DNA from: a virus
IMG/VR virus record: IMGVR_UViG_3300013772_000002
Coordinates: 40,817 to 104,816 of that record
DNA length: 64,000 nt
Direction: 5' to 3' (one strand)
The position numbers and the translations under genes are program-made. The notes beneath the pieces are model-generated. The model was not told where the DNA came from. It saw only the letters and a program-made list of their open reading frames with translations, and ran no database searches. Shown one piece after another: positions 13,691-46,791 of this stretch (position 1 is its first letter; the number at the start of each line of letters is the position of its first letter).

Positions 13691-15751
13691 ATGCCTGTCG
13701 CTACCTCCGCCGTTGACCCGCTCGACGATTTGTTTGGCGCGATCAAGGGCAAACTCAGCCAGCAAGTACAGCGCGACGAGCGCGCCCGGCTTCGCCTCGC
13801 AAGCGGCGGGGCGATTGGTGCTGGCGGCTCGGCTCTGCGCATGTACGAAGAAGGGACGATCTGGACGGATGGTATTGCGCCACCAACCTTCGTCGATTTC
13901 GTCACGAACGAGATGGAGGGCTTTCTTTATCCTCTGCAGGCCGAAGCAATCATGGCCGCGATTGGCAACGATCCTGCTTTGCTCTTTCATCCGCGAGTCG
14001 ACGAGAACGAGTATTACAACGATTGGCCGAATGGTCCACCACTACGCAATATTATATCTACTATTATCTTGTTATGGGGTAAGGGAAGCGGAAAAGACCT
14101 CATCATTTCATATCTAGTATCATATATAGTGTTTGTAATCATGCACATGGCAGACCCCTATGCATACTTTCATCATGCCCCCGGTGAACCCTTCGACATC
14201 ATTAACTGCGCCATTAATGCCCACCAAGCGCAGAACGTCTTCTTCCGTAAGCTCAAGAATTGTTTGTTGCGTGAGTGTTTTCAGAAGTTCGGCAGTAGGC
14301 CCGACATCCTCACTGATCGTGCCATCTTCTACCGCGTTGTTCCGGGCATCTCCGAGCCGGTCGAACTGATTCGTTGCTGGTCACGCCACTCGAAATCTGA
14401 ATCGATTGAGGGGATGAATATCATCGCCTTTATCCTCGACGAGGCATCGGGATTCGAGCTCAAGGGGAAGAAGGAACTGGCGGAAGACGACGAGGGCGAA
14501 GAGTACGCCCTCTCTCCCGCCGATGCGATCTTCGATGTTCTCGAAACATCCGCCGCAACGCGCTTCGAGGATCAGTACCTGGGATTCGTGATTTCGTATC
14601 CACGCTTTGAAGATGACTTTACGATGCGGATGTATAACCGGACACTTCTGGATCATCCAATGAACTACTTCTCGTTGGACGACATCGATGATCCGAATGA
14701 CTCCGTCGGGCTATCGCGGATCGGCAAGTTGAAGTATCCCCACATCTTCGCGCATAAAGCGGCTACCTGGGAAGTCAACCTCAAGAAACCACGCAGTGCA
14801 TTCGATAAGTTCTTTCGTGCCAATCCTGAGAAGTCGGCGATGCGCTTCGCTTGCGAACCGCCCCCCGCCAAGGGCGGCTACTTCTCGCAGCCACAAAAGA
14901 TTGACGAGGCATTCAGTGAACGCCTTCGCCCCGCTGTCCAGTGGACCGTCGACCATATTCGCCGCGGCTCTCAGGAGTTGGTCGGCGTCAAGTTGACAGG
15001 GCACCGCTTCTCTCCCGCCAACCTCTATGTTGCCCACTGCGATCCCGGTCTGAGTTCTGACGCTTTCACGCTCGGTATCGCGCACCCGAACTACGCGGTA
15101 CAAGCGGAAATCTTCGACTCCAAAGGAAAGGCGTACACGGTTCCGCAGGTGGTGATCGACTCGCTTATCGTCTGGCGTCCCGAGCCGCGCGAGCATCGTG
15201 TCGTTGATTTCATTAATGCCTCGCAGGTGATTCTCGATCTGGCCGGACTTTGTGACATGCGTCGTTGGTCGGCGGATCGTTGGAACAGCGCCCAGTTACA
15301 ACAACAACTGACTGCCGCTGGCATTCGCTGTGAGTACGCCGCCTTCTCGAATGCACAGCAAATCCAGCAGTACGAGAATTTCAAGACACTCCTCTATGCC
15401 GGACTGATCAAGTTCAGTGGTTTCTGGGATGTCGAGCCCTGGCGGCGCGTACGAGACGAACTTCGCAAGTTGATCCTCATCAATGGCACGCGCATCGATC
15501 ACCAAACGGGCGGATCGAAAGACTGTGCGGATGTCGTTGTTGGTGCTACCTGGCTCGCTTGCCAAAAAGGTCTCTCGCAGCGGGCATTCGAGGGATACGC
15601 TCCCCCCGCTCCGGGTCATGCCACTCTCCACCAGCACAACCAGACAACATCGACCCTTGATACCTTGCGCCGCATGCACCGCGCTCCAAACGCGAAGGAA
15701 ACGCTGCGGCTCCCCTACGCCAAGTCCCGCATTTCGGCAGGAGTTAGCTAA
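13691..15751 (+). CDS. terL: terminase large subunit
   Basis: The 686-residue DNA-packaging motor has an ATPase and a nuclease part. The Walker A-like motif is WGKGSGKD at about 129-136, and Walker B with the catalytic Glu is IIAFILDEASG. The nuclease domain shows spaced acidic positions in YVAHCDPGLSSDAF, in MRRWSADRWNS and in GGSKDCADVVVGAT, as in RNase H-like terminase nucleases. A 130-base patch around the Walker A motif (14040-14170) uses ATA, CTA and TTA codons that the rest of the gene avoids. The stop codon overlaps the portal start (TAATG), so the two are translationally coupled. Confidence 0.92.
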   Translation: MPVATSAVDPLDDLFGAIKGKLSQQVQRDERARLRLASGGAIGAGGSALRMYEEGTIWTDGIAPPTFVDFVTNEMEGFLYPLQAEAIMAAIGNDPALLFHPRVDENEYYNDWPNGPPLRNIISTIILLWGKGSGKDLIISYLVSYIVFVIMHMADPYAYFHHAPGEPFDIINCAINAHQAQNVFFRKLKNCLLRECFQKFGSRPDILTDRAIFYRVVPGISEPVELIRCWSRHSKSESIEGMNIIAFILDEASGFELKGKKELAEDDEGEEYALSPADAIFDVLETSAATRFEDQYLGFVISYPRFEDDFTMRMYNRTLLDHPMNYFSLDDIDDPNDSVGLSRIGKLKYPHIFAHKAATWEVNLKKPRSAFDKFFRANPEKSAMRFACEPPPAKGGYFSQPQKIDEAFSERLRPAVQWTVDHIRRGSQELVGVKLTGHRFSPANLYVAHCDPGLSSDAFTLGIAHPNYAVQAEIFDSKGKAYTVPQVVIDSLIVWRPEPREHRVVDFINASQVILDLAGLCDMRRWSADRWNSAQLQQQLTAAGIRCEYAAFSNAQQIQQYENFKTLLYAGLIKFSGFWDVEPWRRVRDELRKLILINGTRIDHQTGGSKDCADVVVGATWLACQKGLSQRAFEGYAPPAPGHATLHQHNQTTSTLDTLRRMHRAPNAKETLRLPYAKSRISAGVS

Positions 15752-17715
15752 TGCCCCGCGACCCGCGCATGCCAAACATCCCGGCGCCACCTGACTGGGA
15801 CTACCACCAGGGGAAAATCTATCTTCCCCCGACGATTGCCAAGTCAATTAGGGAAGAGAAGAGTGCCGAAGAGAAGGCGATCAAGGGGAAGCTCTTCTCC
15901 AACTGGTCCCGGACAATTACGCGTACCGCCGGCGGCGCCGTTGACCGTTCGCCGAACCGCCCCTCACACGCCCTCCTGAAGTACGTGGCACGTAACTGCA
16001 CGCTGGATTCAGCGATTATCTCGACACTCAAGGCGAACATTTCCGCCTTTACACAAGTCGCCCACGTCGAGGGGAAGCAGATTGGCTTCCGCGTCGTGCA
16101 CAAACGGTACAACGATCCCGCCTGGCAGCCGGACGAGGAGACGTTACACGATATCAATGATCGCTGCCGCCAGATGGAACGCTTGATCCTCAATACGACC
16201 AAGCCCGCCTGCCCTTCGTTCGCCACCTTTATGTCGGCGGCGACCGATGATGAGCTGACAATCGACCGCGCGAACATGGTGATCGTCCCTGACCGCCAGG
16301 GACGTCCCCTTAGTTATCACTATCTTCCCGGCGGGACGCTCTTGCCACGCTTCCTCTATCTCAAAGAGTTCATGGCTCGCTGGGGTAAAGAGGATTCGCT
16401 CTTCTATAATGACGACCGTGCCGCCCAACGTCTTTCCGAGGAGCTGAAACTTAACGGCGTGCGCACTCCCGAGGGGCACGAGATCGACCTGACGCATGCC
16501 GCTTTCGTACAGGTCCTTGATGACAATACCGTCTGTGGCGCTTGGACTGAGAAGCAATTGGCGATTGACATTATCAACCCGATGGTGGAGATCGACCAGA
16601 GTTACTTTGGCACTTCGCCGGTCGAGCAGTCACTCGACGTGAGCTATCTGTGGAACAGTGCCTGGAACTACCAGAAGCAGCTATTCCAAACGACCTGGCC
16701 CGAAGCGATCCTCCTGTTGCACGGCGACTACTCCCCCGAAGGGTTGCAGGGGTTCAAGGACGATGTCCTTGCCTCGCACGGTAACTCTCAACGTCTGCCA
16801 GTGATTTCCGGTGGTCCGAAAGGGGAGACCGACGTCTCGCTCGTTACATTGCGCAATACGCCACAGGACATGCTCTTCGACCAGCTGTTGAAATTCATGC
16901 TCGCGCTGAAGTGCGCCTTTTTTCGCATCCATCCCAGTACGATCAACTTCGCTTCCGAGGGCGCCGCTTCCGATGGCGGTCTGCCCCAAGACCGAAACTA
17001 CATCATCCAGCAGGCCAACGAAGAGGGCAACCGTTCGCGCCTGCGTCGTCGCTTCGGCTGGCTGACCCATCACCTGATCATCCCATGGTACGACGATCTG
17101 ATCGCCATTCCCGAAGGAATGGACATGGTTCCCTTCGAGCAGGTCATTCAACGTGAGATCGAGCTCTCCGGCGCGGGCATCAAGACGAAGAACGAGACGC
17201 GCGCGCAGATCGGTCTTCCGCCCATGCCCGATGGTCTACCTGGCTCCAACCTTGGCGACTGGACTGGATCACAGGTCGATGTCGCGATCGTCGGCGCCAT
17301 CCAGGCTCAGGAAGCGATGAAGCAGCAGCAACAGGCGCAGATGAACCCACAGAATGTCGCCGCACAACAGCCGGGCGCTAGCGGTGGCGACTATGGCGCC
17401 GACCAAGGGATGCCCCAGGGCGGTGCGACCACCCCACCTCCACAGGGTCAACCACCCCAACCCGGCGCCCCGCCGACGGGCGGACCACCCGCGGCGCCGC
17501 CGCCTCCTCCGGCACAAAAGAGTCTCAATCCATTGACGGAAACGGAGGGACATCCCCACCATCGGAAGACACATTACAGTCTTCTCTGGTCGGGTGGCCC
17601 GGTCGTGCCGCGCGGCGGTCTCGGTTCTGCCTACATGGAGGATGACGAGGACGACACTGATGATGGTCCGAATGGTTCGGACGATGATGGAGGCGAGGAT
17701 GGCGACGACGTCTAG
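15751..17715 (+). CDS. portal protein
   Basis: The 654-residue protein is assigned as the portal from its size, its coupling to terL, and features typical of the family: an N-terminal helical wing, a YFGTSPVEQSLDVSYLWNSAWNYQKQ helix run (clip and stem region), and residues about 320-355 (HGDYSPEGLQGFK, then RLPVISGG) that correspond to the portal core loop. The C-terminal 130 residues are low-complexity: Gln-, Pro- and Gly-rich, then an Asp-rich end. It should form the dodecameric ring at the head vertex through which DNA and internal proteins leave. A segment of it is mirrored in the small Tat-signal protein at 43098-43520. Confidence 0.85.
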   Translation: MPRDPRMPNIPAPPDWDYHQGKIYLPPTIAKSIREEKSAEEKAIKGKLFSNWSRTITRTAGGAVDRSPNRPSHALLKYVARNCTLDSAIISTLKANISAFTQVAHVEGKQIGFRVVHKRYNDPAWQPDEETLHDINDRCRQMERLILNTTKPACPSFATFMSAATDDELTIDRANMVIVPDRQGRPLSYHYLPGGTLLPRFLYLKEFMARWGKEDSLFYNDDRAAQRLSEELKLNGVRTPEGHEIDLTHAAFVQVLDDNTVCGAWTEKQLAIDIINPMVEIDQSYFGTSPVEQSLDVSYLWNSAWNYQKQLFQTTWPEAILLLHGDYSPEGLQGFKDDVLASHGNSQRLPVISGGPKGETDVSLVTLRNTPQDMLFDQLLKFMLALKCAFFRIHPSTINFASEGAASDGGLPQDRNYIIQQANEEGNRSRLRRRFGWLTHHLIIPWYDDLIAIPEGMDMVPFEQVIQREIELSGAGIKTKNETRAQIGLPPMPDGLPGSNLGDWTGSQVDVAIVGAIQAQEAMKQQQQAQMNPQNVAAQQPGASGGDYGADQGMPQGGATTPPPQGQPPQPGAPPTGGPPAAPPPPPAQKSLNPLTETEGHPHHRKTHYSLLWSGGPVVPRGGLGSAYMEDDEDDTDDGPNGSDDDGGEDGDDV

Positions 17716-19200: not shown

Positions 19201-20548
19201 TGCACTTGGTCCTGTCCCCACACTTCATCTTGACCACCACGGCTTACCCGTGGCGTTTGGAGACGTGCCAGCGGGGGCATATAGGATCATCACCCTTCTC
19301 GAGGGTCCCCTGACGGGAAAGGACATCCTCATCCGTAAACGCCCCGATAACGCCGTCGATCTCTTTCTCGTCCCCGAGAACAAGATTGGCAAATCCCTGC
19401 GCCTCGATGGTATCGGTCACGAACCTGATCGGGAACCGCTAGAGAAGACCTTTATCGAGCATCTCGGTTCTCACCTTGCCGCCCAATCCGCCGCAAAGAC
19501 CGTCGCTCCGACGCCGCCGCCACAGGCATCGTCAACATGGACGAGTACGAACAAGCCGACACATATAGCGCACGTCTCATTGCCATCAGGACAGACAAAA
19601 TACATCGGTATGCACGGCACTCCCATGCCTGATCTCGAGTCGTATAAGATTGGCAATCCCGCCGATCGTGCCGATGGTTCGATCGGTATCCGTAATGGGC
19701 AGAAGTTGGCGATGACGCCCGTTGAGCGCGCGACCAATCGTGCCTACGGCGTGACGAATCCGACTGCGGACCTCCCCTCCGCCCGGATCGGCACGAATGC
19801 GCAGGAGGCGGTCAGGCGGCGCGTCTCGCATCCTGACTTCCGGATGATCGACGAAACAGGTAAATCGAAGTCGGATCGTTGGGACGACATGGAACGCAAG
19901 GTATTGGCGGGCGGTCTGGTACCGAGCGACCATCCCTATCTCTCACCGCGCGCCTACATGGGCATTGGCCCTGACGGTCATGTCATTCATGTCGCCACCG
20001 CCGCGACGGAAAAGATGCGTCCCGAACTGCCGCAGTCTAGGGGCGAGAGCTATGCGTATGGCGAACATAGTCACAAGAGTACGGGCGACTACCCCGATCG
20101 CGGCCATGCCGACGATTTCCTCCATCATGCGATCTACAACCCCGCCTGGGTGACGATGCAGCGACGACATGGCAAGGACATCATGTACCGTCACGTCTAC
20201 CCGCGCGCGGACGGCAAGAACAGCCAGTTGGAACATGACGCGCCGGGCGGCCTCACGTACGTAATGGAGCGCATCCGTCACCCTAATGACCCAAACGGTA
20301 ATCACTGGAACCTGCAGACCGTGATTACGAACCAGGGTTATAGTCGTCACCACCCAACCCACGATCAATACGTCGCGGAGTCACATCGTCTCGCTGACGA
20401 TAATCGTGGCGCGCGCTATATCCGCAGTAGCGAGAATCCGAATGACCCGGGCGTCCAGGCTGCCGTTGCCGCCAGCGCCAAGCGGTATGAGTACCTCTCA
20501 AACAAGAACTCTCCCAAGATTGCCGATCCAGACACGGGAGGGCGCTAA
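19193..20548 (+). CDS. accessory virion-region protein, 451 residues
   Basis: The start is either ATG 19193, overlapping the previous stop, or GTG 19181; neither has a good ribosome site, so coupling is likely. Residues 15-75 form a small domain with a beta-turn pattern (VPAGAYRIITLLEGP, AVDLFLVPENK). A Pro-rich linker follows, then a His- and Asn-rich C-terminal half (EHSHKSTGDYPDRGH, MYRHVYPRADG, HPNDPNGNHW). Its stop overlaps the start of the 3637-residue gene (TAATG). I cannot assign a function; it is probably made and packaged together with the giant proteins. Confidence 0.5.
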   Translation: MTDALGPVPTLHLDHHGLPVAFGDVPAGAYRIITLLEGPLTGKDILIRKRPDNAVDLFLVPENKIGKSLRLDGIGHEPDREPLEKTFIEHLGSHLAAQSAAKTVAPTPPPQASSTWTSTNKPTHIAHVSLPSGQTKYIGMHGTPMPDLESYKIGNPADRADGSIGIRNGQKLAMTPVERATNRAYGVTNPTADLPSARIGTNAQEAVRRRVSHPDFRMIDETGKSKSDRWDDMERKVLAGGLVPSDHPYLSPRAYMGIGPDGHVIHVATAATEKMRPELPQSRGESYAYGEHSHKSTGDYPDRGHADDFLHHAIYNPAWVTMQRRHGKDIMYRHVYPRADGKNSQLEHDAPGGLTYVMERIRHPNDPNGNHWNLQTVITNQGYSRHHPTHDQYVAESHRLADDNRGARYIRSSENPNDPGVQAAVAASAKRYEYLSNKNSPKIADPDTGGR

Positions 20549-23500
20549 TGCCCGTCACGCCGTCAACAATCCCACCGAACAATGTTCCCGTCCGCCTTGC
20601 CGCTAACGCGGCGCAGGGAACGGCGCCGACGATGGGGCAAATACACGGTATTAGTAATGACCTGAAATTGGTGCCATCTCCGAACGCGGGAAAGACTGAC
20701 CTCACTCCGGGCGTGCCTGGTGGCATGGTGCCGAAACTCGCCCTCAATCTTCCCCAACGTCCACGCATCACGGCTGATCCGGTCGAAGATCAGCCATCAG
20801 CCAATGCATTTCCGGTTGCCGGTGGTGGATCGCCTCCGCCTCCCGCCGGTTCCGCCGTGCATCGTGCGGTTCCCCGGCTCTTCGGCGGACTCAATAACGC
20901 CAATGACCTGCGTCTCGATTACGCCGCCGCCGTTCGTCATCCCGACGGCGACTGGTTCGCGGACGGCGGCTACGCCCCGCCCCGCGTCACCGACGACCCG
21001 CTCGCGAATCGCGCGTACGGCGCTCAGCGCGCCGCCGCCCACACAAGCGTTGCCCAGGGTGCGCCCGCCGCTTGGGTTGGTCCAGACGGCGCGGTCGGTC
21101 ATGGCATCTCGCTCCACGATCGCGAAGGTAACTTGATTGGTCATACAATGCGCCACTATCATGACGACGGCGCCGGTGGTATCGCGACACGCATGCACCC
21201 GATGACCCTCGCTCCAGGGATTAATCCGGCGGTCGCGCACCAGCACGCCCATGCCGAGGATCAATGGCTCAGGGGGCATGGCGTGACACGCAAGGAGCGG
21301 TCGGTCGGCGCCGGGCAAGAAGCACACGACGCGGCGCGCGAGGGCTACGACTTTGCCTCGCCTGCCCAGGGCTACAATGCGACACAGCGCTATCACCGCT
21401 ATCTGATGGAGCGCGGCCATACGCGGGCGATGAACGAGTGGCAAGATCGGTTGGCCGCCGAGGGGCGAGACGCGATGACGCCCAACGAAATCGTCACGCA
21501 CGCTCCCTTCCAGACACAGGTAACACAGCGCGGTGAAAACGGTCATGCCGAGGACTTTCCGACGGTCGGTGCGGGCACTGCCTACATGCTCGAACATCAG
21601 CAGCCCTATGAGGCGGTGCAAGATTTTGATTCGCCCGGCGATCGGATCGGCGTTGCCCAACGCGCCGTGGAAATGAGCAAGTCCCTTGCTCCTCCGCCGA
21701 TGCCGAAGATCGATGTCCATGCGGAGCCGCCGCGTGGCGCTTACCGCATTCCGCCCGTACCGAAACCGGCGCCCGCCCAGCCGAAAGCGGCGGAACCGTG
21801 GCATGGCACCGCTGAACGGGCGGCCGCGACCTGGCGCTCACCGACGCCTGAACCAGAAGGATGGGGCAAACCGAAGCCGCCGCCCGAGTCGGTCACTGGT
21901 CCTGCCGTCCATGGCGCGACTCCCTACGCCAACGTGACGCCAACGCATATTCCCCACGAACCGGATGCCCCGCCGGTCCACCAGATGACCCAGGCGGAAT
22001 TCCTCAAGACTGGCCACCTCCTCTACCCGAGCAGCGAAGATAATGGCTACGGGAACACCGCCCGTATGCGTCTGACGCCGGAGATTGGCGGCAACCTCAA
22101 TCGCTACGCCGAAGAGGTCGGCGGCGCATCAGTACGCGGCAGGCATCGCAAGGCGGGCAACAGCGACCCGACCGGCGGCGGTCGTCCTCCGGAGCACGCG
22201 GCGATCCAGACGGAGCGGCGCGCTGACCTTCGGGCGGCGATGGAGAAGCATGGCGTCCTCTGGCATCACGACGAGCAAGGCAATCCACAACGAATCGACA
22301 ACCTCGACGCCCTGCCCGAGCATATCCACGACAATGGCAACATCTTTGCCTTCCCGCCTGATGCGCCCAAGCAGGACGCGAAGACGGTCTGGGGCAGTGG
22401 CTTCCGCGCCGACCAGGGTCACTCCCCTTACAGCGACGAACCCGATACCAGCGAGGACATGACCGATAGTTATACCGCCGGTCATCACGGTAAAGTCGTC
22501 GACCATAACTTCCTCTTCGACGCCGACGATGACTTCGAGGAGAACGAGCACGAAGGGACACCCAAGAAGCCCGCGCCAGACCCCAAGGTCGTCCTGGCAC
22601 GTCGGGACATGATCGGCAACAATGGCAAGAAAGTCCATGCGAACCTCGTACGCGCGGCCCTCATGCACGGCGACGAGCATGTCCCCGACTCCGTGCTCGC
22701 CGACTATCCGGGGTTGCGCGAGAAAGTCGACGCGGAGCGGCTTGAGAAGTTCCGTCCGCAGATGGAATACAACGCCACCCTCCGCCCCCACCTCGACGAT
22801 TTTGCCGTCAAGGCGCGCAAATTTATCCAGAACAGCGTCGACAAGAAGATGGAAGGGCATCTCGCGGCCGTCAAGCGGGACAAGCCGAATCACATCCCCG
22901 AGTACGGTGATTTCGATACCCATCCCTCTGCCAGTGACCGTCGGCTGGCGGCGTTGGACTATGAGACCGTCGCCCCCTTCGACGTTCCGGATGCCCATGC
23001 GGCGATGGAGTCTTGGCCCAAGGGCGCGCGGGAGCTCCCGAAAGTCGGTCAACTCGCCAAGCACTACGACGCCCATGCCGCGCTGACGCGCCACCATAGT
23101 GGCGCGGACCTCTATCACTACACCGTCTCCCCCGGTCATTTCTCTGACTTCCAGCCGGAGCGCAAGACCGAATACGAACCGGAGACCTCCTCGCGCAACG
23201 CCACCTACCTCGCCGAGACCCCCTTCGGCGCGGCAACCGGCGGCCGGGGTGGCTCGGAGAACCCCGACCCCTACTGGGGGGACGTCCCCCCGGCGCACTC
23301 TAGTCCCCCACCCACACTGCCGCTCGTCGGTCACCCGGAACGCCGGGACTATTCGCATCCCGGCACACGCGTCTTTGCCGTCAAGCATCACGGTCTTCGC
23401 ACCTTGGGCGAGGACATCCCCAAGCATCCGATCGCCAACGAGGCTGAGTGGCATAGCCATCGCGCCCTGATCCGCCGACTGGCAGAGAAGCGCGATGCGA

Positions 23501-26500
23501 TCAAGGACCCGAAGGTACGCGAGCGCGCCAAAGAGCTGATCGAGCAGCATCGCTTGGGTCTGGACGGTCATGTCGATGCGACGCAATTCGCCATGCGCTG
23601 GCACGATGCGGAGAACCCCTTGACGCAGGCCGCGGCAAAGGCGCTCGGCTACAATAACCTGATCGTCGCCGATGAAACGGGTCACTCCTCTGCCGTCATG
23701 GATCAGTCGAAGATCAAGGTTGGGCAGCCCGTCGCCTCGATCTTGCGTGCCTACGAACCCGGCGATCTCGCCAAGACGCTCGTTCATAGTCTCGCACCCA
23801 ACGCCAAAAAGAATGATGAAACCTGGCGCGACCTCGTCACCCTCCGTGAGTTGGGCAAGGATGAACTCGACGAGCACATCGCACGTCACCAGGGCATTAC
23901 CAAGTCAGTGCCAGTCGCCCGACCCGGCACTGCCGCCCAGATACCAACGCCAACTTCACCGCCACATATACCGACACTTCCGACACAAACCGCAACGCCG
24001 ATTCCCAAACACACGTCAACCATCAGTCCGCCCGATGCACCGGGGGAAACGCTAGGTAAGCCCCCGAAAGACGAGAGGTCGATGGCCCAATATCTGAATT
24101 TTAAAGACCTCTATCACGGCACGGGCATGCCTCATTTGGAGCCCTCGATTCTGGATAGTAAAAAAGTTTCAGCAGGCAGTCTCTTTGGTCCCGGTATCTA
24201 TCTGACGGATAATCCGACAGTCGCCCAAGGATATGCGCGTGACTCAGAGGGAAAGACCGGATACGAGTATCCCACCGTCTATCATGGCAAAACGAACCTG
24301 CGCCGCGTCCTCGACCTGGAACAGCCCGCACCCAGACGCGTACGCACGCTCTTTCGCCGTGCCGCTGCAAAAGTGCCAGCGGGACATCACGCGTCATACC
24401 CCGAAGGGCAGATGGCCGATGCGCTGATCGACCCGGCGACAAAGACCGAAGATTTGTATAGGCATCTTTTGAACGCGCACTCATACGTTCCGCATAGCGA
24501 TGCCGACCATCCCTATCGCCAAGTCAACGACGAACTGGCGCGGATGGGCTATGACGGTCTGACGCATATGGGGGGAGGACGGCGGGGCGGTGGTAACATG
24601 CACCGCGTCGCGATCGTCCTCGATCCGCAGGGCAGGAATCGAAAGCGAGTGGCGATCTCGGTGAAAAAACTGATCCCCCAGTTCCAGGGGAATGAAGCGT
24701 CCCCATATCCGAACCTGCAATACGGAGCGGACGCGGTGAAACGGAAGCGGGCATATATCGAAGACCTGCACGAAACCGCACGTGATTTTCGCCAGAGCCC
24801 GGATGTCTGGAGTGTTCCCAGTGGTCAACCACGTTATTTGCGCGAAGCACTTGATGCCGTCAAAACGCGTCACGATCCACACGATACGATGCCGGATGGG
24901 TATGATCCGCGAAGATTACTGGCCCAGCAGGGCGGGATGTACGATTGGGCGCGCAACACCCTTGCTGGCGGGAAGTTGACCGGCAACGACGCTCATTTTC
25001 CCCACGATCACGACCTTCTCTGGGGACATAGCATCGTTGCCGATAAGGGGAAGGGTGGTCCCGAGCAAGCAGAGAATTACGATGCCCATCGTGACGAAAG
25101 CCAAAATGCGCTTAGGCGCGAAGCGCATCCCTGGCTGGCGCAAAGAATCATGGAGGCGGCCAAGCGCGACAAGTGGTTCACGCCACCGGATGAAGAAGCA
25201 ACGAAGACGCTTTCGGGCGGTCTCGCTGATATGCTGCTGAAGGCGCTGGTGCATACACCGTCATCACCGACGCCGCCGTCAATCGACCAGGCGCCGCATT
25301 CCGCCCGCCTGACCGCGCAATATGCCGCTGACCCGACGCAGATGACGCGTGCCCAGTTCCGCGCGCCGCCCCCCGTGGCTCCCGAGGGACGGCGGATGCT
25401 CTACCATGCGGTTCGCGATCCCGCCGTCATTCCCAACATTATCAACGAAGGACTGGACCCGACCCGGGCGCGCAGCGACATGGACGGAGGTAGCAATGTC
25501 ATCTGGTCGGCGGCGTCGCGCACGGGCTACGGACCGGAAGCGCACAAGGTCGCCTTCCATGTTCCCGAAGACGATCGCTCCGTCGAGCGTGCTGGCGGAC
25601 CTGGTGAGGATGCGCACTATCGTGTTACGCGTCCAATCCTCCCACATGAGATCGCACAGGTTGATCGTCCCTACCACACCGCCGTCTCAGGCGGCAATAC
25701 CCTCGGTGCCCAACGCGCGAGTCACTACGCCGATGCCTATCACGAGCACATCATCCAGGAAGCACTCGATCGTGGCGACCCGGTACCGGAGCATGTGCGC
25801 GCGGAGTACCCACACCTCTCTCCACCAGACAAAGAACCGACGACGTGGCGCGATAACGTCAACCTAACCCCTCTCGGTGACGACGAACTCAACGAGCATA
25901 TCGCTCGCCATGCCGAATTGAACAAGTCGATTCCACAAGCGCCACCTGGTACTGCGGCAACGCTGCCGCCTCCGAAGCCGCCCCCGACGACGACGCCCAC
26001 TCCGACCACGCCAATGGTGCCGCGCAAGGTCTCGCCTGCGAAAACCGACTGGCGCTCACTGGAAACGCCGCAGTCCGAGGAGCGAGCGATGGCGCAGCGC
26101 CTCAACCGGACCGACTTCTACCACGGCACGGGGATGCCGCACCTCGAACCGACTAACCTCGACAGTGGCAAGACGAAAGCCTCCGGACTCTACGGACCGG
26201 GCGTCTATATGACCGACAACCCCACCGTCGCTCAGGGATACGCAAAGGACTCAAGGGGCAAGGCGGGCTCCGAGTTCCCGGTCGTCTACCACGGGAAGAC
26301 AAATTTTCGGCGCGTCCTAGATGCCGATCGAGAAGCGCCGCGTCACGTCCGGGATATCTTTCGCAAGGTAGCGAAGCCGTTCACTGACGATGTTGACACT
26401 GACGCCGAGAAGTACGAGACCTTCGACGGGCACCTCAACGATCCCACAACGCCGACGACGAAGCTCTATCGCGCCCTGCGACCGATGATCGAAGACGTCG

Positions 26501-29500
26501 ACGACTACTCCGAGGAAGACCATCCGTTCCGCCAGGTCAATCGCGCACTTGCGAGTCACGGTTACGACGCGATTACCCATCTCGGCGGCGGTATTCGCGG
26601 CAACGTGCGTCACCGGGTCGCGATCGCCCTCGATCCGCAGCGCGAGGATCGCCAACGTCCCGTTTCGCCGATCAAGAAGCTCGAGCCGAAGTTTCAGGAG
26701 GGAGACGCATCGCATTACCCGAATCTGAACTACAGCTCGACGTTACATCAGAAATACCTCGACGAGTTGCATGCGACCGCCCGCGACTTCCGCTACCCTG
26801 GCAGCGCGCCGGACGCGGGGGATGCCACCGATGTAACGGACGCCCTCAGTCGTGTCAAGTACAAACATGACCCCGGAAATACCGCACCAGAGTCGGTCGA
26901 CGATCGCGGCGTGAGCATGACGACCAAGTTGCGGCGTCGTGCGCGACTCTACCATTGGGCGCGGGAGATAGAAGAGCAAGGACACGACGCCGATCTCCCT
27001 TTCGACGATGCCCAGGTGCCGAACGAACACGGCATGCTCTCGGGTCACGGCGTCGTTTCCCACGACAATCCCGACGAAGAGCAAGTACGCGAATACGAGA
27101 ACAAGCGGCAGGAGGGTGATCACTTCCGCGGACAACCGTCCTACCTTCGCATGGGCGCGCATCCTTGGCTTGCCAATCGGATCATGGAGACCGCCAAGCG
27201 CGACAAGTGGTTCGAGCCGCCAAAAGTGGAAGCAACGAAATCCTTCGCCGAACTCTTGCTCAAGACGTTCGTTCATACCCCCTTGACAGCGCCGTCCGGC
27301 CTCAGTGGTCGCTCCTTTGCTACCGTCCTCGTCACGTCACTCGACGGTAACCATGAGATACGCAAGGCGAGCGTCCCCCCGCCCCCCGCGTCCGTGCCGG
27401 CATCGACGGTTGTTGCCCACAACACGAACTGGTTCCGACGACCGTCAGGCGAGACGGGGACGACGGCAACCAAGACCGCAGCAATCAAGGCACAGGGCGG
27501 TCTGACACTCACCGGCAATAATAAGGCGCCGATGACGCAGGAATTCAACCGGCGGCTTGGGCGTGCCCCGGAATCGCTGTTTACGACGCGCACCGGGGAT
27601 AATACGCTCGACACGATGCGCGAGAATGGCATTCGTCCCGAAGCGTCGCTCGCTGAACATGCTGACGCGTTCCGCGATAAACTCTATCTGGGCATACCCC
27701 ATGATACCTACGGTCGGTTGAAGGTCGATGATATGTGGAGCCTGCCGAGTACGCGAGGGGCGTCACAAAACCCCGAGGCGATCGCCTCGGACCGCAGGGT
27801 CTACGAACAGAACCGCCGTCCACTTGCCGCGCACGATGCCTTTCATCGCGGAGTCAACCCAAAACACGGCGGAATCCGTGAGTACAACGAGATTCCAATC
27901 GACCGCACTGCACACCCAAGTGGTCATTTTCCCCTCGATCACCTCGCCTTCGGCCACGACATCGTTGAAGGCGCGCTCGCCGAGGACCCCCAAACGACCG
28001 TCCATGACTACCTTCATAAACATCTCGCGCCCCATCTCGCCGAGCGTTTTGGCTATCAACTCCCCGCCCACGATATCAGTGCTTTGGCCGGACTCGATGA
28101 TTCAGATTTCAGTGGCGTCCAGTACGACTATAACGGGCGCTCTCCACTGCCGATCGATCACTGGGACGGCGAAGAATTGCCACAGGGTATCAAAGACCTG
28201 GGTTGGCATACGCCGCAGGTCGAGAAATCGTTCGCCAAATCTAATGCTGCTCAGACAGGCGTGATGATCGGTCTCTGGGTGCCAAAAGAGGCTGCGGAGA
28301 AGTTGGCGATGCCGGACGGTGAAGAATCTGACGAATTACACATCACGCTCGCCTACCTTGGCAAATTAGGAGAGGACGTCGATCAACAGACAGTCACGCG
28401 TATGACAAATGCCGTCCGTCGTTGGGCAGCAAACCAATCTCCCTTTGTCGGCCATGTCGAGGACGGCGGCCGCTTCCCTGCCTCCGAAGGAAGTGACGGC
28501 AAGGACGTCCTCTTTGCCGTGCCGGAGATCGATGGGTTGCGCGAGGCGCGAACCGATCTCTGTCGACAATTGAAGAAAGCGAAAATAGAGTGGAAGCAGG
28601 ATCACGGATTCACGCCACACATAACCCTCGCCTACGTCGACCAGGGCGGGAAATGGCCTGCGGATGGTCCCGCCGAGACGCAACTGACATTCACACACGT
28701 TACGGTTTGCGCTGGACCTGACCGGACGGCGATCCCCTTCAAGGGTATCGCAAAGGTACATAAAGATGGGGCGATTGGCGAGGGTTGGGGAACCTATAAG
28801 AAAACGGGCGCGGTCAAAGCAGAGAAAATGGATGCCGCTTTCACAGTCGCAACGAAGGAAGGTAAGGCTTCCGGCAAAGCCGGGGATTATCGTGTTACCG
28901 GGATTGATGGCGAACAATGGCCGATCCCTGCCACTGACCTGTCGCGTTTCTATCGCCCAACGAAAGAGGCGGGCGTCTATCGTTCCGTCGGCACACCTGT
29001 GCGAGCAAAGAAGATGACCGAGACATTCACTGTCAAGATTGACAATGGAGAACAATTGCACGGTAAGATAGGCGATTATCTCATCGAGGGTAAGGATGGT
29101 GCGCGCTGGGTTGTTGACTCCCATATCTTTGCGCGCACGTACGAAGCCGTCACGGGCGTGTCGCTGGCAAAGACGCTGATCCACGCCATGTCTGGATCGT
29201 CCACCCCCGCCGTTCAAAGGTCACCAACCACACCGATCGCCGCACCCGCACCCGCAATGTCGCCGAAGGCGGAGAACGTTAACTATGCATCTCTTCCCAA
29301 GGAACACCCTTTCTGGGAGGGGAGCGACGATCATCTCTACCACTCCACTCCCGCAGATAACCTGCCGAGTATTGCGCGCCACGGTCTGCATACGAACATC
29401 CCATTCAATGACTACGAGGACGACGAGAACCCGGACGCACCAGGTGCGTGGCCGGAGGGCGGGAGTGAGCCGCGAACCTACTTCGGTGATAGCCCCCGTA

Positions 29501-31461
29501 ATGCGGACGAGTACGGAGGAGGGAATAACGCGATGCTGCGCGTACCATATGATCACGTCAGCGCGCGGGATCACGGGAGCGACTATTCCGGAACCTACGC
29601 GCGCGAGGATATCCCGGCTAAGCACGTCGAGTATTACGGCGATGGCGCTTGGAAACCGATGGAACACCATCCCTCCCTCGCCGAAACGGAGAAATCACTC
29701 GCCAAGGCGACGACCTTCTCACTAAAGAATCTGCCGCCCGCCAAGCCGATTCATCACTACCGCCATCGCACCGATAGCGGGCACGAGCATCTCGGCGTCG
29801 TACCGACCGGCACACCTCATGGCGCGGGCGAACGACCCGAGCACGCTTCACCTGCCTGGCGACTGGCGACGACCGGACATGTCGATTTCTCTGGTACGAA
29901 CCATCAGGATCATCCCCGTCACCACCACACGCTGCTGCCGATTTACCAGGGAGAGCAGGGGCGGCACGACCTTCTCACTCACCATCGCTTCGCGGCGCAT
30001 ACCCGTCGCGCGCACGAACAGGGCGAGACGAAGGGATACTGGGATGAGTTGCCGGGACCCGAGGATGTGCCGACCTATGGTGACCGCGAGCACGCGGAAC
30101 ATGCCCTGGCGCATTACCGTCAAGCACGCGATACCGCCAAGCACGTGCATCATGCCGCCGATGGTGACGCGCGCCATGCCGACGCTGCCGGAAAATGGCA
30201 ACACTACGTCAGCGACCTCTCTGCCCTCCACCACAAACTGACGGGCAAGCATCCTGAACTGGACCTTCTCGAAGGCGATGTCAAGCGGATGCAGCGCGTT
30301 CACCAAATGCTGACATCAATGACCCCTGCCGATCTGGCGCGTGACGCGACAGCGGGCGTCCTTCCCCAGCCGGGCACGACTTTTCACCTGCACGCCGATC
30401 GGTCCGCTTTCGACGACGGTGACGTGGAAGCGCTCGACATGGCTGATAGCGCGATGGCCGGACTCGCTGATGAGATTGGGCGCGCCATCCCAACGGGAAT
30501 GCCGCTCGATGCTCGCAAGGGAGAGCGCGTCCGTACCGCGCGTCGCGCCTGGTTGCAACTGGCGCGAGATTTGAAGCGCCAGAGCGCGCTTCGTCACCAT
30601 GTCGCGGATACCGGACGCGCGCCACACGAGTCACTTTGGCACGATCTCGAAACGCCAGGTTCAGGAACGCCCTTTTACCGCCTTTCCCAAGGAGCGCTCA
30701 ATCGCAACGTCGATCGCCTCTTGCCCCAGCGTCGCCAACAGGATGCCGAACGCGCCTTGGGCATGACGTTCGCGCAGTTCGTCGCGGAGAAAATGCGCGA
30801 TACCGGAACGCAGGCGCCGCCCGAATTGGCGTCGATGAAACTGATTCAGTACTGCGACAAGATGCGCCCTGTCCATGGTGGCTCGCTCGATCAGTTGCGA
30901 CAAATACTCGCCCAGGGCGCTTTCGATATTCTTGGCACACAAGATCGCTCGGGCATCTCACACGCGACGCTCTCCGGCGATGAGGAAGCGTCCGGATTGG
31001 AGAACGCGGTTTTCCTCCAGGACGGTCCGCCCCATGGCGACCCGGAGTATATTGCCGTCTTTCACCCGCGCGTTCTCAGCCTCCACGGCGCGGTTGCGAT
31101 CCCGATCAATCATGTCTCGCTCGATTCCGGAAAGACTCTTCCACTCGATAACTTGCTCGTTTCTTGCGCCGACCGAGCCATTCGTGGTAAGATTATGATA
31201 GCCCTTGGCATTATGCCTGCTATTCTCGCCGGGCGCTGGGACGACCTCACCTCCGGCGCTTGGGCCGATCACGCGGGTTTGTGGTATGCCTTCCCCTTCG
31301 GCATCGCCCTCTCTGACATCACCCACTTGATTCTCGCACCCGGCACGGACGCTGACCGGGTTGCCGATATTACGCGACACGCTCATGCCGCCTCCCACAC
31401 CATTGAAGTAACGACGGGTCGCTACGCGGACGTCGTGACGCTGACCGCGGAGCGCAAGTGA
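20548..31461 (+). CDS. giant polyvalent protein with multiple ADP-ribosyltransferase-like domains and a 2H phosphoesterase
   Basis: The 3637-residue protein, coupled to the previous gene by TAATG, is a chain of domains joined by Pro-rich linkers. ADP-ribosyltransferase-like modules show the H-Y core: LYHYT (855) with TYLAETP (887); LYHGTG (1188) with GPGIYLTDNP (1216); LYHAV (1618) with NIINEGLDP; FYHGTG (1857) with GPGVYMTDNP (1885); LYHST (2930) with YFGDSP (2978). Modules two and four are diverged copies. Residues 2566-2733 are a 2H phosphoesterase with both H-x-T motifs (HITLAYLG at 2598, HITLAYV at 2691). Two PGDYG-type domains follow (GDY near 2779 and 2843). The remaining parts, including about 100-370 and the C-terminal 600 residues, are unrecognised. 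Position between portal and capsid genes suggests a virion protein delivered into the host, comparable with T4 Alt. Enzyme activities are inferred. Confidence 0.8.
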   Translation: MPVTPSTIPPNNVPVRLAANAAQGTAPTMGQIHGISNDLKLVPSPNAGKTDLTPGVPGGMVPKLALNLPQRPRITADPVEDQPSANAFPVAGGGSPPPPAGSAVHRAVPRLFGGLNNANDLRLDYAAAVRHPDGDWFADGGYAPPRVTDDPLANRAYGAQRAAAHTSVAQGAPAAWVGPDGAVGHGISLHDREGNLIGHTMRHYHDDGAGGIATRMHPMTLAPGINPAVAHQHAHAEDQWLRGHGVTRKERSVGAGQEAHDAAREGYDFASPAQGYNATQRYHRYLMERGHTRAMNEWQDRLAAEGRDAMTPNEIVTHAPFQTQVTQRGENGHAEDFPTVGAGTAYMLEHQQPYEAVQDFDSPGDRIGVAQRAVEMSKSLAPPPMPKIDVHAEPPRGAYRIPPVPKPAPAQPKAAEPWHGTAERAAATWRSPTPEPEGWGKPKPPPESVTGPAVHGATPYANVTPTHIPHEPDAPPVHQMTQAEFLKTGHLLYPSSEDNGYGNTARMRLTPEIGGNLNRYAEEVGGASVRGRHRKAGNSDPTGGGRPPEHAAIQTERRADLRAAMEKHGVLWHHDEQGNPQRIDNLDALPEHIHDNGNIFAFPPDAPKQDAKTVWGSGFRADQGHSPYSDEPDTSEDMTDSYTAGHHGKVVDHNFLFDADDDFEENEHEGTPKKPAPDPKVVLARRDMIGNNGKKVHANLVRAALMHGDEHVPDSVLADYPGLREKVDAERLEKFRPQMEYNATLRPHLDDFAVKARKFIQNSVDKKMEGHLAAVKRDKPNHIPEYGDFDTHPSASDRRLAALDYETVAPFDVPDAHAAMESWPKGARELPKVGQLAKHYDAHAALTRHHSGADLYHYTVSPGHFSDFQPERKTEYEPETSSRNATYLAETPFGAATGGRGGSENPDPYWGDVPPAHSSPPPTLPLVGHPERRDYSHPGTRVFAVKHHGLRTLGEDIPKHPIANEAEWHSHRALIRRLAEKRDAIKDPKVRERAKELIEQHRLGLDGHVDATQFAMRWHDAENPLTQAAAKALGYNNLIVADETGHSSAVMDQSKIKVGQPVASILRAYEPGDLAKTLVHSLAPNAKKNDETWRDLVTLRELGKDELDEHIARHQGITKSVPVARPGTAAQIPTPTSPPHIPTLPTQTATPIPKHTSTISPPDAPGETLGKPPKDERSMAQYLNFKDLYHGTGMPHLEPSILDSKKVSAGSLFGPGIYLTDNPTVAQGYARDSEGKTGYEYPTVYHGKTNLRRVLDLEQPAPRRVRTLFRRAAAKVPAGHHASYPEGQMADALIDPATKTEDLYRHLLNAHSYVPHSDADHPYRQVNDELARMGYDGLTHMGGGRRGGGNMHRVAIVLDPQGRNRKRVAISVKKLIPQFQGNEASPYPNLQYGADAVKRKRAYIEDLHETARDFRQSPDVWSVPSGQPRYLREALDAVKTRHDPHDTMPDGYDPRRLLAQQGGMYDWARNTLAGGKLTGNDAHFPHDHDLLWGHSIVADKGKGGPEQAENYDAHRDESQNALRREAHPWLAQRIMEAAKRDKWFTPPDEEATKTLSGGLADMLLKALVHTPSSPTPPSIDQAPHSARLTAQYAADPTQMTRAQFRAPPPVAPEGRRMLYHAVRDPAVIPNIINEGLDPTRARSDMDGGSNVIWSAASRTGYGPEAHKVAFHVPEDDRSVERAGGPGEDAHYRVTRPILPHEIAQVDRPYHTAVSGGNTLGAQRASHYADAYHEHIIQEALDRGDPVPEHVRAEYPHLSPPDKEPTTWRDNVNLTPLGDDELNEHIARHAELNKSIPQAPPGTAATLPPPKPPPTTTPTPTTPMVPRKVSPAKTDWRSLETPQSEERAMAQRLNRTDFYHGTGMPHLEPTNLDSGKTKASGLYGPGVYMTDNPTVAQGYAKDSRGKAGSEFPVVYHGKTNFRRVLDADREAPRHVRDIFRKVAKPFTDDVDTDAEKYETFDGHLNDPTTPTTKLYRALRPMIEDVDDYSEEDHPFRQVNRALASHGYDAITHLGGGIRGNVRHRVAIALDPQREDRQRPVSPIKKLEPKFQEGDASHYPNLNYSSTLHQKYLDELHATARDFRYPGSAPDAGDATDVTDALSRVKYKHDPGNTAPESVDDRGVSMTTKLRRRARLYHWAREIEEQGHDADLPFDDAQVPNEHGMLSGHGVVSHDNPDEEQVREYENKRQEGDHFRGQPSYLRMGAHPWLANRIMETAKRDKWFEPPKVEATKSFAELLLKTFVHTPLTAPSGLSGRSFATVLVTSLDGNHEIRKASVPPPPASVPASTVVAHNTNWFRRPSGETGTTATKTAAIKAQGGLTLTGNNKAPMTQEFNRRLGRAPESLFTTRTGDNTLDTMRENGIRPEASLAEHADAFRDKLYLGIPHDTYGRLKVDDMWSLPSTRGASQNPEAIASDRRVYEQNRRPLAAHDAFHRGVNPKHGGIREYNEIPIDRTAHPSGHFPLDHLAFGHDIVEGALAEDPQTTVHDYLHKHLAPHLAERFGYQLPAHDISALAGLDDSDFSGVQYDYNGRSPLPIDHWDGEELPQGIKDLGWHTPQVEKSFAKSNAAQTGVMIGLWVPKEAAEKLAMPDGEESDELHITLAYLGKLGEDVDQQTVTRMTNAVRRWAANQSPFVGHVEDGGRFPASEGSDGKDVLFAVPEIDGLREARTDLCRQLKKAKIEWKQDHGFTPHITLAYVDQGGKWPADGPAETQLTFTHVTVCAGPDRTAIPFKGIAKVHKDGAIGEGWGTYKKTGAVKAEKMDAAFTVATKEGKASGKAGDYRVTGIDGEQWPIPATDLSRFYRPTKEAGVYRSVGTPVRAKKMTETFTVKIDNGEQLHGKIGDYLIEGKDGARWVVDSHIFARTYEAVTGVSLAKTLIHAMSGSSTPAVQRSPTTPIAAPAPAMSPKAENVNYASLPKEHPFWEGSDDHLYHSTPADNLPSIARHGLHTNIPFNDYEDDENPDAPGAWPEGGSEPRTYFGDSPRNADEYGGGNNAMLRVPYDHVSARDHGSDYSGTYAREDIPAKHVEYYGDGAWKPMEHHPSLAETEKSLAKATTFSLKNLPPAKPIHHYRHRTDSGHEHLGVVPTGTPHGAGERPEHASPAWRLATTGHVDFSGTNHQDHPRHHHTLLPIYQGEQGRHDLLTHHRFAAHTRRAHEQGETKGYWDELPGPEDVPTYGDREHAEHALAHYRQARDTAKHVHHAADGDARHADAAGKWQHYVSDLSALHHKLTGKHPELDLLEGDVKRMQRVHQMLTSMTPADLARDATAGVLPQPGTTFHLHADRSAFDDGDVEALDMADSAMAGLADEIGRAIPTGMPLDARKGERVRTARRAWLQLARDLKRQSALRHHVADTGRAPHESLWHDLETPGSGTPFYRLSQGALNRNVDRLLPQRRQQDAERALGMTFAQFVAEKMRDTGTQAPPELASMKLIQYCDKMRPVHGGSLDQLRQILAQGAFDILGTQDRSGISHATLSGDEEASGLENAVFLQDGPPHGDPEYIAVFHPRVLSLHGAVAIPINHVSLDSGKTLPLDNLLVSCADRAIRGKIMIALGIMPAILAGRWDDLTSGAWADHAGLWYAFPFGIALSDITHLILAPGTDADRVADITRHAHAASHTIEVTTGRYADVVTLTAERK

Positions 31462-41120: not shown

Positions 41121-41133
41121 TTTGGGAGCGATC

Positions 41134-41970: not shown

Positions 41971-41973
41971 GGG

Positions 41974-44600: not shown

Positions 44601-44784
44601 GAGGATACACCCCGATCGACCGAGGTAGAAAACCGGGCACTATTACACCCACCGCGTAGCGGTCGGTGATTGATGCGGGAACTGCTCGACCCGCCGGAAC
44701 GATCCCCCTTCGTACAACCTACGTGCCCATTACGGGGCCAGAAGCACCTCCGGGGTGTTTTTTGGCTTGCGTTCCCGGAGACCC
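44601..44784 (+). promoter_or_regulatory. structured leader with attenuator-like hairpin
   Basis: About 180 bases lie between promoter 2 and the protease start. They hold a perfect small hairpin (ACCGC-GTA-GCGGT, 44651-44663) and, at 44742-44760, a stem with CACC/GGTG core flanked by A-T and G-T pairs, followed by a run of six T ending at 44763. The second looks like a weak intrinsic terminator placed 22 bases before the protease ATG, so it could attenuate capsid operon transcription. No known riboswitch is recognised. Confidence 0.45.
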
Positions 44785-45681
44785 ATGCCCGAGACGGTCT
44801 ACTACAAAGATTTCCGTCCCGACGAACTCGAAGAGAGCTTCTCCTTCGGGATGCCAATCTCGAAGAGCGAGATGTGCGAGCACACGGGGTTGCGCTATAT
44901 CGAGGGGATTGCCTCTACCGAGGATTGGGACCAGCAGGACGAGCAGATGCTCGCTTCCGGCATGGACCTCGATTACCTCATCAATAAGGGTACGATCAAC
45001 TGGAACCACTCGCACGCCGCCGCCGATCTGATCGGCATCCCCGAGAAGGTTCAGATCAAGATTTGGGAAGGCAAGCCCGCCCTCTGGGTACGCGCCGCCC
45101 TCCTCCCCAATGTCGCGAATGCCGATTACGCCTGGACTCTGATGAATGCCTACGACTCGGTCAAATCGATGGGTGGTCCCATCCGCACCGTCGGTTGGTC
45201 AGTCGAGGGAGGCGTCCTCCGCAAGGAGAACGGACGCATCACCAAGAGCGTAATTCGCAACCTCGCCCTCACCCAGGAGCCGGTCAACGACAAGACCTTC
45301 GCCGACTTCGCCAAGTCGCTCAATCACAACGCGATCGCGAAGACCTTCTCCTCCGGCGGTTCGGTCAATCCAACCTTCGCTGGCGCGGATGACGCGGGTG
45401 CGGCTCTCCGGTTGGAGAACCTTTCCGCCGGTCGTCGCGACGAAGAGGACGAGGACGAGGAACGTAAGAACGGTACCTATAACGCCTCTCTGGTTGGTAT
45501 CGGCGAACTGCGCCGCTCCCTCGCCGCCAGCGGCTCTCCCCACTACGACGCGCGCACCGGGCGCTTCGTGAACGGATTTGACGGGATGTTCAAGCATCTC
45601 ACCCAGATCGATCTAATGCCGTTCGGTGCAGCGGCGGAATTGGTCAGTTGGCTGCGGGCGCAAAGCCTGCCCGCCGCGTAA
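44785..45681 (+). CDS. prohead protease with capsid-like segment
   Basis: I start at ATG 44785 (GGAG seven bases upstream); the ATG at 44755 is inside the leader hairpin region. The 298-residue protein has a prohead protease core: YIEGIASTEDWDQQDEQM, candidate catalytic His75 in INWNHSH, candidate Ser139 in GWSVEGGV, and the closing LALTQEPVN. It should cleave scaffold and capsid precursors inside the prohead. Residues 185-213 (AKTFSSGGSVNPT, then DAGAALRLENL) are nearly identical to residues 35-63 of the major capsid protein. An acidic linker (DEEDEDEE) and a small C-terminal domain follow, perhaps a scaffold-type tail or self-cleaved piece. Protease class is assigned from motif order, not proved. 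Confidence 0.8.
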   Translation: MPETVYYKDFRPDELEESFSFGMPISKSEMCEHTGLRYIEGIASTEDWDQQDEQMLASGMDLDYLINKGTINWNHSHAAADLIGIPEKVQIKIWEGKPALWVRAALLPNVANADYAWTLMNAYDSVKSMGGPIRTVGWSVEGGVLRKENGRITKSVIRNLALTQEPVNDKTFADFAKSLNHNAIAKTFSSGGSVNPTFAGADDAGAALRLENLSAGRRDEEDEDEERKNGTYNASLVGIGELRRSLAASGSPHYDARTGRFVNGFDGMFKHLTQIDLMPFGAAAELVSWLRAQSLPAA

Positions 45682-45698
45682 TCGGAGGCGACACTTCC

Positions 45699-46716: not shown

Positions 46717-46791
46717 CCCCTCGATCCCCCTTGACGGCGCCTCGCGCCCCTCGATGACCCCACAGGCATGTTTCCCAGGAGGACCCCTTCC

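What the first reader, a model, noticed from the sequence alone, without database searches (positions are those of the whole stretch)
20548..31461. Giant polyvalent protein with about five ADP-ribosyltransferase-like modules plus a 2H phosphoesterase
Five positions show the H-Y core of ADP-ribosyltransferases (LYHYT, LYHGTG, LYHAV, FYHGTG, LYHST, most followed 25-50 residues later by a Y-containing strand such as GIYLTDN). The same chain contains a 2H phosphoesterase, a fold that includes enzymes opening cyclic ADP-ribose phosphates. A macrodomain gene lies elsewhere in the genome (2818-3255). This could be a self-contained system that writes, processes and removes ADP-ribose marks during infection. 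T4 Alt shows that such proteins can be packaged and injected. To my knowledge this domain combination in one chain is not described; I cannot search to confirm.
Basis: partly seen in the sequence, partly recalled or inferred. Interest (0 to 1): 0.85.

Follow-up and report, generated by a model that had tools for sequence, protein, structure and literature searches.

The report
Phage multi-effector polyprotein with protease-like sites
A virus of bacteria encodes one giant head-region protein that strings together at least three NAD-using enzyme-like modules and an RNA/nucleotide phosphoesterase, and sequence patterns suggest that the virus's own capsid protease cuts it between the modules into separate effectors; this is inferred from sequence and not yet shown.

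Summary
The 3637-codon ORF is real, and its five LYH/FYH motifs exceed chance (5 seen, 0.36 expected). Two modules (residues 1120-1565, 1794-2239) are a 446-aa duplication carrying ART-PolyVal domains with an invariant H-Y-D triad. A third (2928-3040) is ART-like by a moderate AlphaFold model: its top PDB matches are KptA/Tpt1, cholera toxin, PARPs and DarT. The other two (857, 1620) have motif support only. A 2H phosphoesterase (both HxT motifs intact) and a PGDYG domain are also present. Multi-ART and 2H polyvalent phage proteins were described by Iyer et al. 2017, so that part is a new member of a known class. 'Write, process and remove ADP-ribose' is not supported.

What looks new lies at the joints. 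The phage has SPO1-type head genes. In 78 such major capsid proteins the N-terminal motif [LIMF]xK[AST][LVFM] is invariant, and it is 14.7-fold enriched in their scaffolds. The giant carries it 8 times (1.3 expected), always between modules and bracketing both duplicated ARTs. Four of these share LxK[AT][LF][VI]H[STA] (0.0002 expected). Best reading: an effector polyprotein packaged in the head and cut in trans by the prohead protease. Packaging and cleavage are inferred; no cut site is experimentally known to me.

The parts
20548..31461 (+). Giant polyvalent head-region protein, 3637 aa, proposed effector polyprotein
   Evidence: Continuous ORF; between portal and prohead protease genes
20548..21681 (+). 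Predicted fragment 1 (residues 1-378), no known domain
   Evidence: No Pfam or PHROG match; ends at motif K378
21682..23775 (+). Predicted fragment 2 (residues 379-1076); holds the LYHYT module at about 838-1065 (H857, Y887, N1036), ART-like by motif only
   Evidence: No profile match; AlphaFold model low confidence
23776..23904 (+). 43-residue linker peptide (1077-1119) with TWRDxVxLxxLGxDELxEHIARH, repeated at the end of fragment 1566-1793
   Evidence: Internal alignment, fragment table
23905..25242 (+). Predicted fragment (1120-1565, 446 aa), ART-PolyVal copy 1; H1190, Y1218, D1336
   Evidence: PF18760; HMM made without window sequences 79.9 bits; triad invariant in 10 sequences
25243..25926 (+). 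Predicted fragment (1566-1793) holding the LYHAV module (H1620, W1653), ART-like by motif only
   Evidence: No profile match
25927..27264 (+). Predicted fragment (1794-2239, 446 aa), ART-PolyVal copy 2; H1859, Y1887, D2007
   Evidence: PF18760; 44% identical to copy 1 over 587 columns including linkers; HMM 86.2 bits
27265..28227 (+). Predicted fragment (2240-2560), no known domain
   Evidence: No match
28228..29172 (+). Predicted fragment (2561-2875): 2H phosphoesterase (2563-2731, HxT at H2598 and H2691) and PGDYG domain (2777-2865)
   Evidence: PF02834, PF14083, TIGR02258 below cut-off, alignment of five 2H domains
29173..29676 (+). LYHST module (2876-3043; H2932, Y2978, E3028), ART fold by model
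   Evidence: AlphaFold pLDDT 62.8, pTM 0.61; Foldseek PDB top matches all ART superfamily; homologous to the C-terminus of Bixzunavirus ParB-like proteins
29677..31458 (+). C-terminal part (3044-3637), no known domain; weaker ninth site TEKSLAK at K3049
   Evidence: No match; site position
21673..21687 (+). Protease-like site MSKSL, K378
23767..23781 (+). Protease-like site LAKTL(VHS), K1076
23896..23910 (+). Protease-like site ITKSV, K1119
25234..25248 (+). Protease-like site LLKAL(VHT), K1565
25918..25932 (+). Protease-like site LNKSI, K1793
27256..27270 (+). Protease-like site LLKTF(VHT), K2239
28219..28233 (+). Protease-like site VEKSF, K2560
29164..29178 (+). Protease-like site LAKTL(IHA), K2875
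44755..45681 (+). SPO1-type prohead (head maturation) protease, proposed processing enzyme; three motif copies
   Evidence: phrog_1028 E 5e-26; SPO1 gp3.2 and others by tblastn
45648..46652 (+). Probable scaffold (position between protease and capsid), four motif copies
   Evidence: No family match; position and motifs
46768..48300 (+). Major capsid protein; conserved N-terminal site FAKTF
   Evidence: phrog_752 E 4e-61; alignment of 78 MCPs
15751..17715 (+). Portal protein
   Evidence: phrog_2662 E 5e-13

Best explanation
The ORF encodes an effector polyprotein of a SPO1-like myophage. It is made with the head proteins, taken into the prohead, and cut by the phage's prohead protease at eight or nine [LIMFV]xK[AST][LVFMI] sites that lie between its modules. 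This would release about nine fragments (5-84 kDa), among them two paralogous 446-aa ART-PolyVal enzymes, a 2H/PGDYG fragment and an ART-like fragment. The fragments would be ejected with the DNA; the ARTs would ADP-ribosylate host targets early in infection, and the 2H domain would act on RNA ends or on 2',3'-cyclic or 2',5'-linked nucleotides of host defence. Shown here: the ORF, the domains named above, the gene neighbourhood, the motif in capsid, scaffold and protease of the clade, its excess in the giant and its position between modules. Inferred: packaging, cleavage (and cleavage after Lys), ejection, catalytic activity and targets.
For: Position between portal and protease/capsid genes. 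K invariant in 78 of 78 MCPs with hydrophobic -2, A/S/T +1, L/V/F/M +2. Motif observed/expected: scaffolds 306/20.9, proteases 215/29.9, MCPs 152/29.8; ORFs upstream of the protease 2.9-fold, downstream of the MCP 1.2-fold for the K[ST] form. Giant: 8 against 1.32, 1 of 20000 shuffles reaches 8. Four sites share LxK[AT][LF][VI]H[STA], expected 0.00024, none in other listed window ORFs or in relatives' ORFs. No site falls inside the seven domain spans (chance 0.024). Both duplicated ART units are bracketed by sites into fragments of exactly 446 aa. No HExxH, i.e. no embedded zincin peptidase of the kind usual in polyvalent proteins.
Against: No cleavage, virion or activity data. The phage is known only as a metagenomic record. 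The motif is low in information: corrected by the background of the window's other ORFs the excess has P 0.01 (K[AST]) or 0.0016 (K[ST]). The relative G022 has a 3021-aa polyvalent protein at the same place without excess (3 against 1.6); G012's 1791-aa one has 7 against 2.1. I found no paper giving the cut site of a SPO1-type protease, so the motif as cut site, and Lys as P1, rest on conservation.
Confidence: 0.55

Rival explanations
1. An ordinary polyvalent protein that is packaged and injected whole (or cut once or twice); the K[ST]-hydrophobic peptides are scaffold- or capsid-binding tags that bring it into the prohead, not cut sites between effectors.
For: The same motif is densest in scaffolds, which fits a binding role as well; four sites share an amphipathic LxKxLVH peptide beyond the MCP-type core; related polyvalent protein of G022 lacks the excess.
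Against: In MCPs the motif sits at the conserved N-terminal position expected for maturation cleavage, and the protease itself carries it; a loading tag would be needed once, not at each joint.
Confidence: 0.27
2. A self-contained ADP-ribose system: ARTs write, the 2H domain processes and the macrodomain gene removes ADP-ribose marks.
For: All three domain types exist in the genome; 2H-fold enzymes that open ADP-ribose cyclic phosphate are known (general knowledge).
Against: The 2H domain matches RNA 2',3'-cyclic phosphodiesterases best (PDB 1vdx, 5h7e; TIGR02258). The macrodomain gene lies in another gene group about 17 kb upstream. Iyer et al. propose RNase or 2'-5' oligonucleotide roles for phage 2H domains.
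Confidence: 0.07
3. An injected RNA-repair set: the 2H domain opens 2',3'-cyclic ends and the LYHST module, closest in fold to KptA/Tpt1, removes the 2'-phosphate with NAD.
For: Foldseek ranks KptA/Tpt1 first for that module; the 2H-KptA link in phage RNA repair is discussed in PMC9503650.
Against: The module has H2932-Y2978-E3028 rather than the arginine-rich KptA set (my knowledge of KptA); model confidence is moderate; no RNA ligase was sought or found in the window.
Confidence: 0.06
4. The motif excess is chance plus shared amphipathic-helix composition; the protein is a polyvalent protein without special processing.
For: Background-corrected P is only 0.01 to 0.0016 within the genome.
Against: Position between modules, extended peptide shared by four sites, conserved brackets of the duplication.
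Confidence: 0.05

Closest known systems
Phage polyvalent proteins (Iyer et al. 2017, PMC5512222)
   Same: Giant multidomain protein next to head genes; ART of the H-Y-D (Tox-ART-HYD2) type in more than one copy; 2H domain; predicted to be packaged and injected
   Different: No embedded metallopeptidase motif found; instead capsid-protease-like sites between modules. Iyer et al. compare polyvalent proteins with polyproteins but invoke embedded peptidases
ART-PolyVal, Pfam PF18760
   Same: Two copies with H, GPGxY and GYD motifs
   Different: Single copies score 21-25 bits, below the family cut-off of 31.2; only the whole chain passes
T4 Alt
   Same: ART proposed to be packaged in the head and injected
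   Different: Alt is of the R-S-E type (PMC5512222); these are H-Y-D, or H-Y-E for the third module
Bixzunavirus ParB-like protein (EasyJones gp85, Alice gp75)
   Same: C-terminal domain homologous to the LYHST module, 32% identity; by eye two further ART-like stretches
   Different: 575 aa, with a ParB domain, encoded near tRNA genes upstream of the portal
SPN3US/T4 prohead-protease substrates (PMC10052503)
   Same: Ejected head proteins processed by the prohead protease
   Different: In SPN3US all identified gp245 cuts other than the protease's self-cleavage give N-terminal propeptides; here the proposed cuts separate functional modules

Membership tests
Phage polyvalent protein | Two or more unrelated effector domains in one large chain | tested here: met
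   ART-PolyVal x2, 2H, PGDYG
Phage polyvalent protein | Encoded with late head/structural genes | tested here: met
   Between portal and prohead protease/MCP
Phage polyvalent protein | Embedded zincin-like peptidase (frequent hub, not obligatory) | tested here: not met
   No HExxH in 3637 aa, no peptidase Pfam match
Phage polyvalent protein | Delivered with the DNA | not testable with these tools
   Needs virion proteomics
ART-PolyVal (PF18760) / H-Y-D ART, modules 1120-1565 and 1794-2239 | Profile match and H, Y, D active-site triad | tested here: met
   PF18760 35.8 bits whole chain; independent HMM 80-86 bits against at most 8.3 for shuffles; invariant H, Y, D
ART superfamily, module 2928-3040 | ART fold with H/Y/E-type pocket | tested here: met
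   Model pLDDT 62.8; the first 50 PDB matches are ART-fold or ART-toxin entries, best E 1.2e-3, prob 1.00; BFVD matches ART/ParB phage proteins. Moderate confidence
ART superfamily, modules at H857 and H1620 | Fold or profile match | tested here: inconclusive
   No profile match, no relatives found, model pLDDT 44
2H phosphoesterase | Two HxT motifs in the LigT fold | tested here: met
   PF02834 28.4 bits, cut-off 23.3; LHIT and PHIT conserved in five sequences
KptA/Tpt1 2'-phosphotransferase, module 2928-3040 | KptA family profile and its arginine-rich active site | tested here: not met
   No KptA Pfam match; YH in place of the KptA residues (sequence; KptA residues from memory)
Substrate of the SPO1-type prohead protease | Carries the clade's MCP/scaffold site motif above chance | tested here: met
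   8 against 1.32; P 0.01-0.0016 after background correction
Substrate of the SPO1-type prohead protease | Actual cleavage in the prohead | not testable with these tools
   Needs virion mass spectrometry or co-expression

The most novel reading that the evidence does not exclude
A phage effector polyprotein processed in trans by the capsid maturation protease: each module sits in its own slot between sites that mimic the capsid and scaffold sites, so effectors can be duplicated or swapped as cassettes, loaded as one chain and released as single enzymes only inside the prohead.
Probability: 0.5. Interest if true: 0.8.

Novelty: new variant of a known kind. Interest (0 to 1): 0.6.

Why it matters
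If true, it explains how a phage can load many different effectors with one packaging step and still deliver them as free enzymes, without the embedded peptidase that polyvalent proteins are thought to use. It would also give a sequence rule for finding head-loaded effectors in the many phages with SPO1-type head genes: look for the capsid-site motif between domains of large ORFs near the portal.

Tried and rejected
Relatives of the whole giant or of the portal in viral contigs by single-sequence search: none, and the first ART-module alignment gave none. Bacterial genome contigs with the second ART unit: none. Relatives of the LYHYT and LYHAV modules in 50 related records: none. Profile-profile comparison of these modules with the ART families: no significant score. 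AlphaFold of residues 838-1800 with ten sequences: pLDDT 44, not interpretable and not searched. PDB sequence search with the ART-PolyVal profile gave only weak ART matches (diphtheria toxin, tankyrase, E 0.014 and up). An intact write-process-remove ADP-ribose circuit: rejected as not supported. A protein-level annotation 'RNA ligase' for the 2H part (phrog names) is a naming artefact of 2H domains; no ligase domain was found. Literature for the experimental cut site of SPO1-type capsid proteins: not found in the open library.

Full report
The window is bases 40817-104816 of a 104,816-base IMG/VR virus record. The head genes are a probable terminase large subunit (13691-15751, weak match), portal (15751-17715), head maturation protease (44755-45681, phrog_1028), probable scaffold (45648-46652) and major capsid protein (46768-48300, phrog_752), followed by a tail sheath (51361-53484). 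Capsid protein and protease resemble those of SPO1-like phages. The giant ORF lies between portal and protease, on the same strand.

Checking the observation. ORF 20548-31461 is a continuous 3637-codon frame. Its five YH motifs exceed chance (5 against 0.36). Residues 1053-1571 and 1737-2245 are a diverged duplication (44% identity over 587 columns), so two of the five motifs are one event. Pfam finds ART-PolyVal (PF18760), LigT 2H phosphoesterase and PGDYG above their cut-offs for the chain. The individual ART copies score 21-25 bits, below the 31.2 cut-off.

Which modules are ARTs. An HMM built from ten phage ARTs, none from this window, scores the two duplicated modules at 80 and 86 bits; the best of 40 shuffles of each module scores 8.3. 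Across ten sequences the H, the Y of GPGxY and the D of GYD are invariant, the H-Y-D set that Iyer et al. give for ARTs of polyvalent proteins. Stand-alone relatives exist in jumbo phages GAP32 and CBB, and others lie inside large polyvalent-type ORFs. The LYHST module is homologous to the C-terminus of Bixzunavirus ParB-like proteins. Its AlphaFold model is moderate (pLDDT 62.8, pTM 0.61), and the 50 best PDB matches are KptA/Tpt1, cholera toxin, PARPs, DarT and an Rhs toxin complex. The LYHYT and LYHAV modules have no relatives, no profile match and no usable model; LYHAV has W in place of the expected Y, and LYHYT has N1036 in place of D. So three ART modules are supported and two are open.

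The 2H domain keeps both HxT motifs. Its closest solved relatives are RNA 2',3'-cyclic phosphodiesterases. Stand-alone relatives sit in the head gene region of Arthrobacter phage Laroye and Mycobacterium phage Colt.

The joints. While reading the module borders I saw a recurring K[ST]-hydrophobic peptide and the same peptide in capsid protein, scaffold and protease. I fixed the motif without using the giant: in 78 capsid proteins of the clade one K is invariant, with L/I/M/F at -2, A/S/T at +1 and L/V/F/M at +2. The scanning pattern is slightly wider, [LIMFV]xK[AST][LVFMI]. In relatives it is enriched 14.7-fold in scaffolds, 7.2-fold in proteases and 5.1-fold in capsid proteins. For the K[ST] form, ORFs upstream of the protease show 2.9-fold and ORFs downstream of the capsid gene 1.2-fold. 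The giant has 8 sites against 1.32 expected; one of 20,000 shuffles reaches 8. A stricter correction by the background of other ORFs in the window gives P 0.01, or 0.0016 for the K[ST] form. I noticed the motif in the giant before testing it, so these P values are somewhat optimistic.

Position. None of the eight sites lies within the seven domain spans (chance 0.024; three of those spans are set by motif or model). Sites bracket both duplicated ART units into fragments of exactly 446 aa. Four sites share LxK[AT][LF][VI]H[STA] (expected 0.00024), two of them outside the duplication. A ninth, weaker site (TEKSLAK, K3049) follows the LYHST module.

Mechanism. The best-supported reading is a head-loaded effector polyprotein cut in trans by the prohead protease. 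Iyer et al. compare polyvalent proteins with polyproteins but invoke embedded peptidases; none was found here. In SPN3US all identified cuts by the prohead protease other than self-cleavage yield N-terminal propeptides, so cuts between effector modules would be different. Packaging, cleavage and activity are inferred. I found no publication with the experimental cut site of a SPO1-type protease, and cleavage after Lys is a guess from the conserved position. The main rival is that the peptides are loading tags and the protein stays whole.

Relatives. Phage G022, with a related capsid protein, has at the same place a 3021-aa polyvalent protein with inorganic pyrophosphatase, ART-PolyVal, LPD1 and Hint domains; it shows no motif excess (3 against 1.6). 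G012 has a 1791-aa ddrB-ParB protein there with 7 sites against 2.1. Thus polyvalent proteins recur at this place, while the proposed processing is not general.

Verdict. Multi-ART polyvalent proteins are known. The candidate novelty is the processing, which is testable by mass spectrometry or co-expression.

Noticed in passing
44755-45681 and 46768-48300; also L007 (SPO1) and L008 (Touem01): The C-terminal tail of the prohead protease carries a near copy of the capsid protein's N-terminal site region (AKTFSSGGSVNPT.AGA.DAGAALRLENL); SPO1 and Touem01 show the same mimicry.
   Followed up: partly
record G000:C1:21767-27529, outside the window (L124 1767-7529): The phage carries PrkA kinase, DUF444 (YeaH/YhbH) and SpoVR genes together, a bacterial stress-response trio, each with a strong Pfam match.
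   Followed up: partly
L123 10264-10974 and 11900-12652 (record, outside the window): Two neighbouring C5-cytosine DNA methylase genes with similar N-termini.
   Followed up: no
L122 4615-6342 (Bixzunavirus ParB-like protein): Besides ParB and the C-terminal YHAT module it seems to hold two more ART-like stretches (YRGISV...GRHWTTD; SLVHFT), read by eye.
   Followed up: no
L113 6964-16029 (record G022): A 3021-aa polyvalent protein upstream of a SPO1-type capsid gene carries a Hint/intein-like domain, possibly another self-processing solution.
   Followed up: partly
31808-36025 and 36036-39179: Two more large ORFs (1405 and 1047 aa) directly after the giant have no Pfam or PHROG match and no site motif; the second looks ParB-like at its C-terminus by eye.
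   Followed up: partly
41101-43101: A DNA methylase (PF01555) and a RecA-like gene (by eye) lie within the head gene cluster.
   Followed up: partly
23776-23904 and about 25840-25926: A short TWRDxVxLxxLGxDELxEHIARH peptide occurs twice, each time just before a K[S][VI]P site; it may be a loading tag.
   Followed up: no
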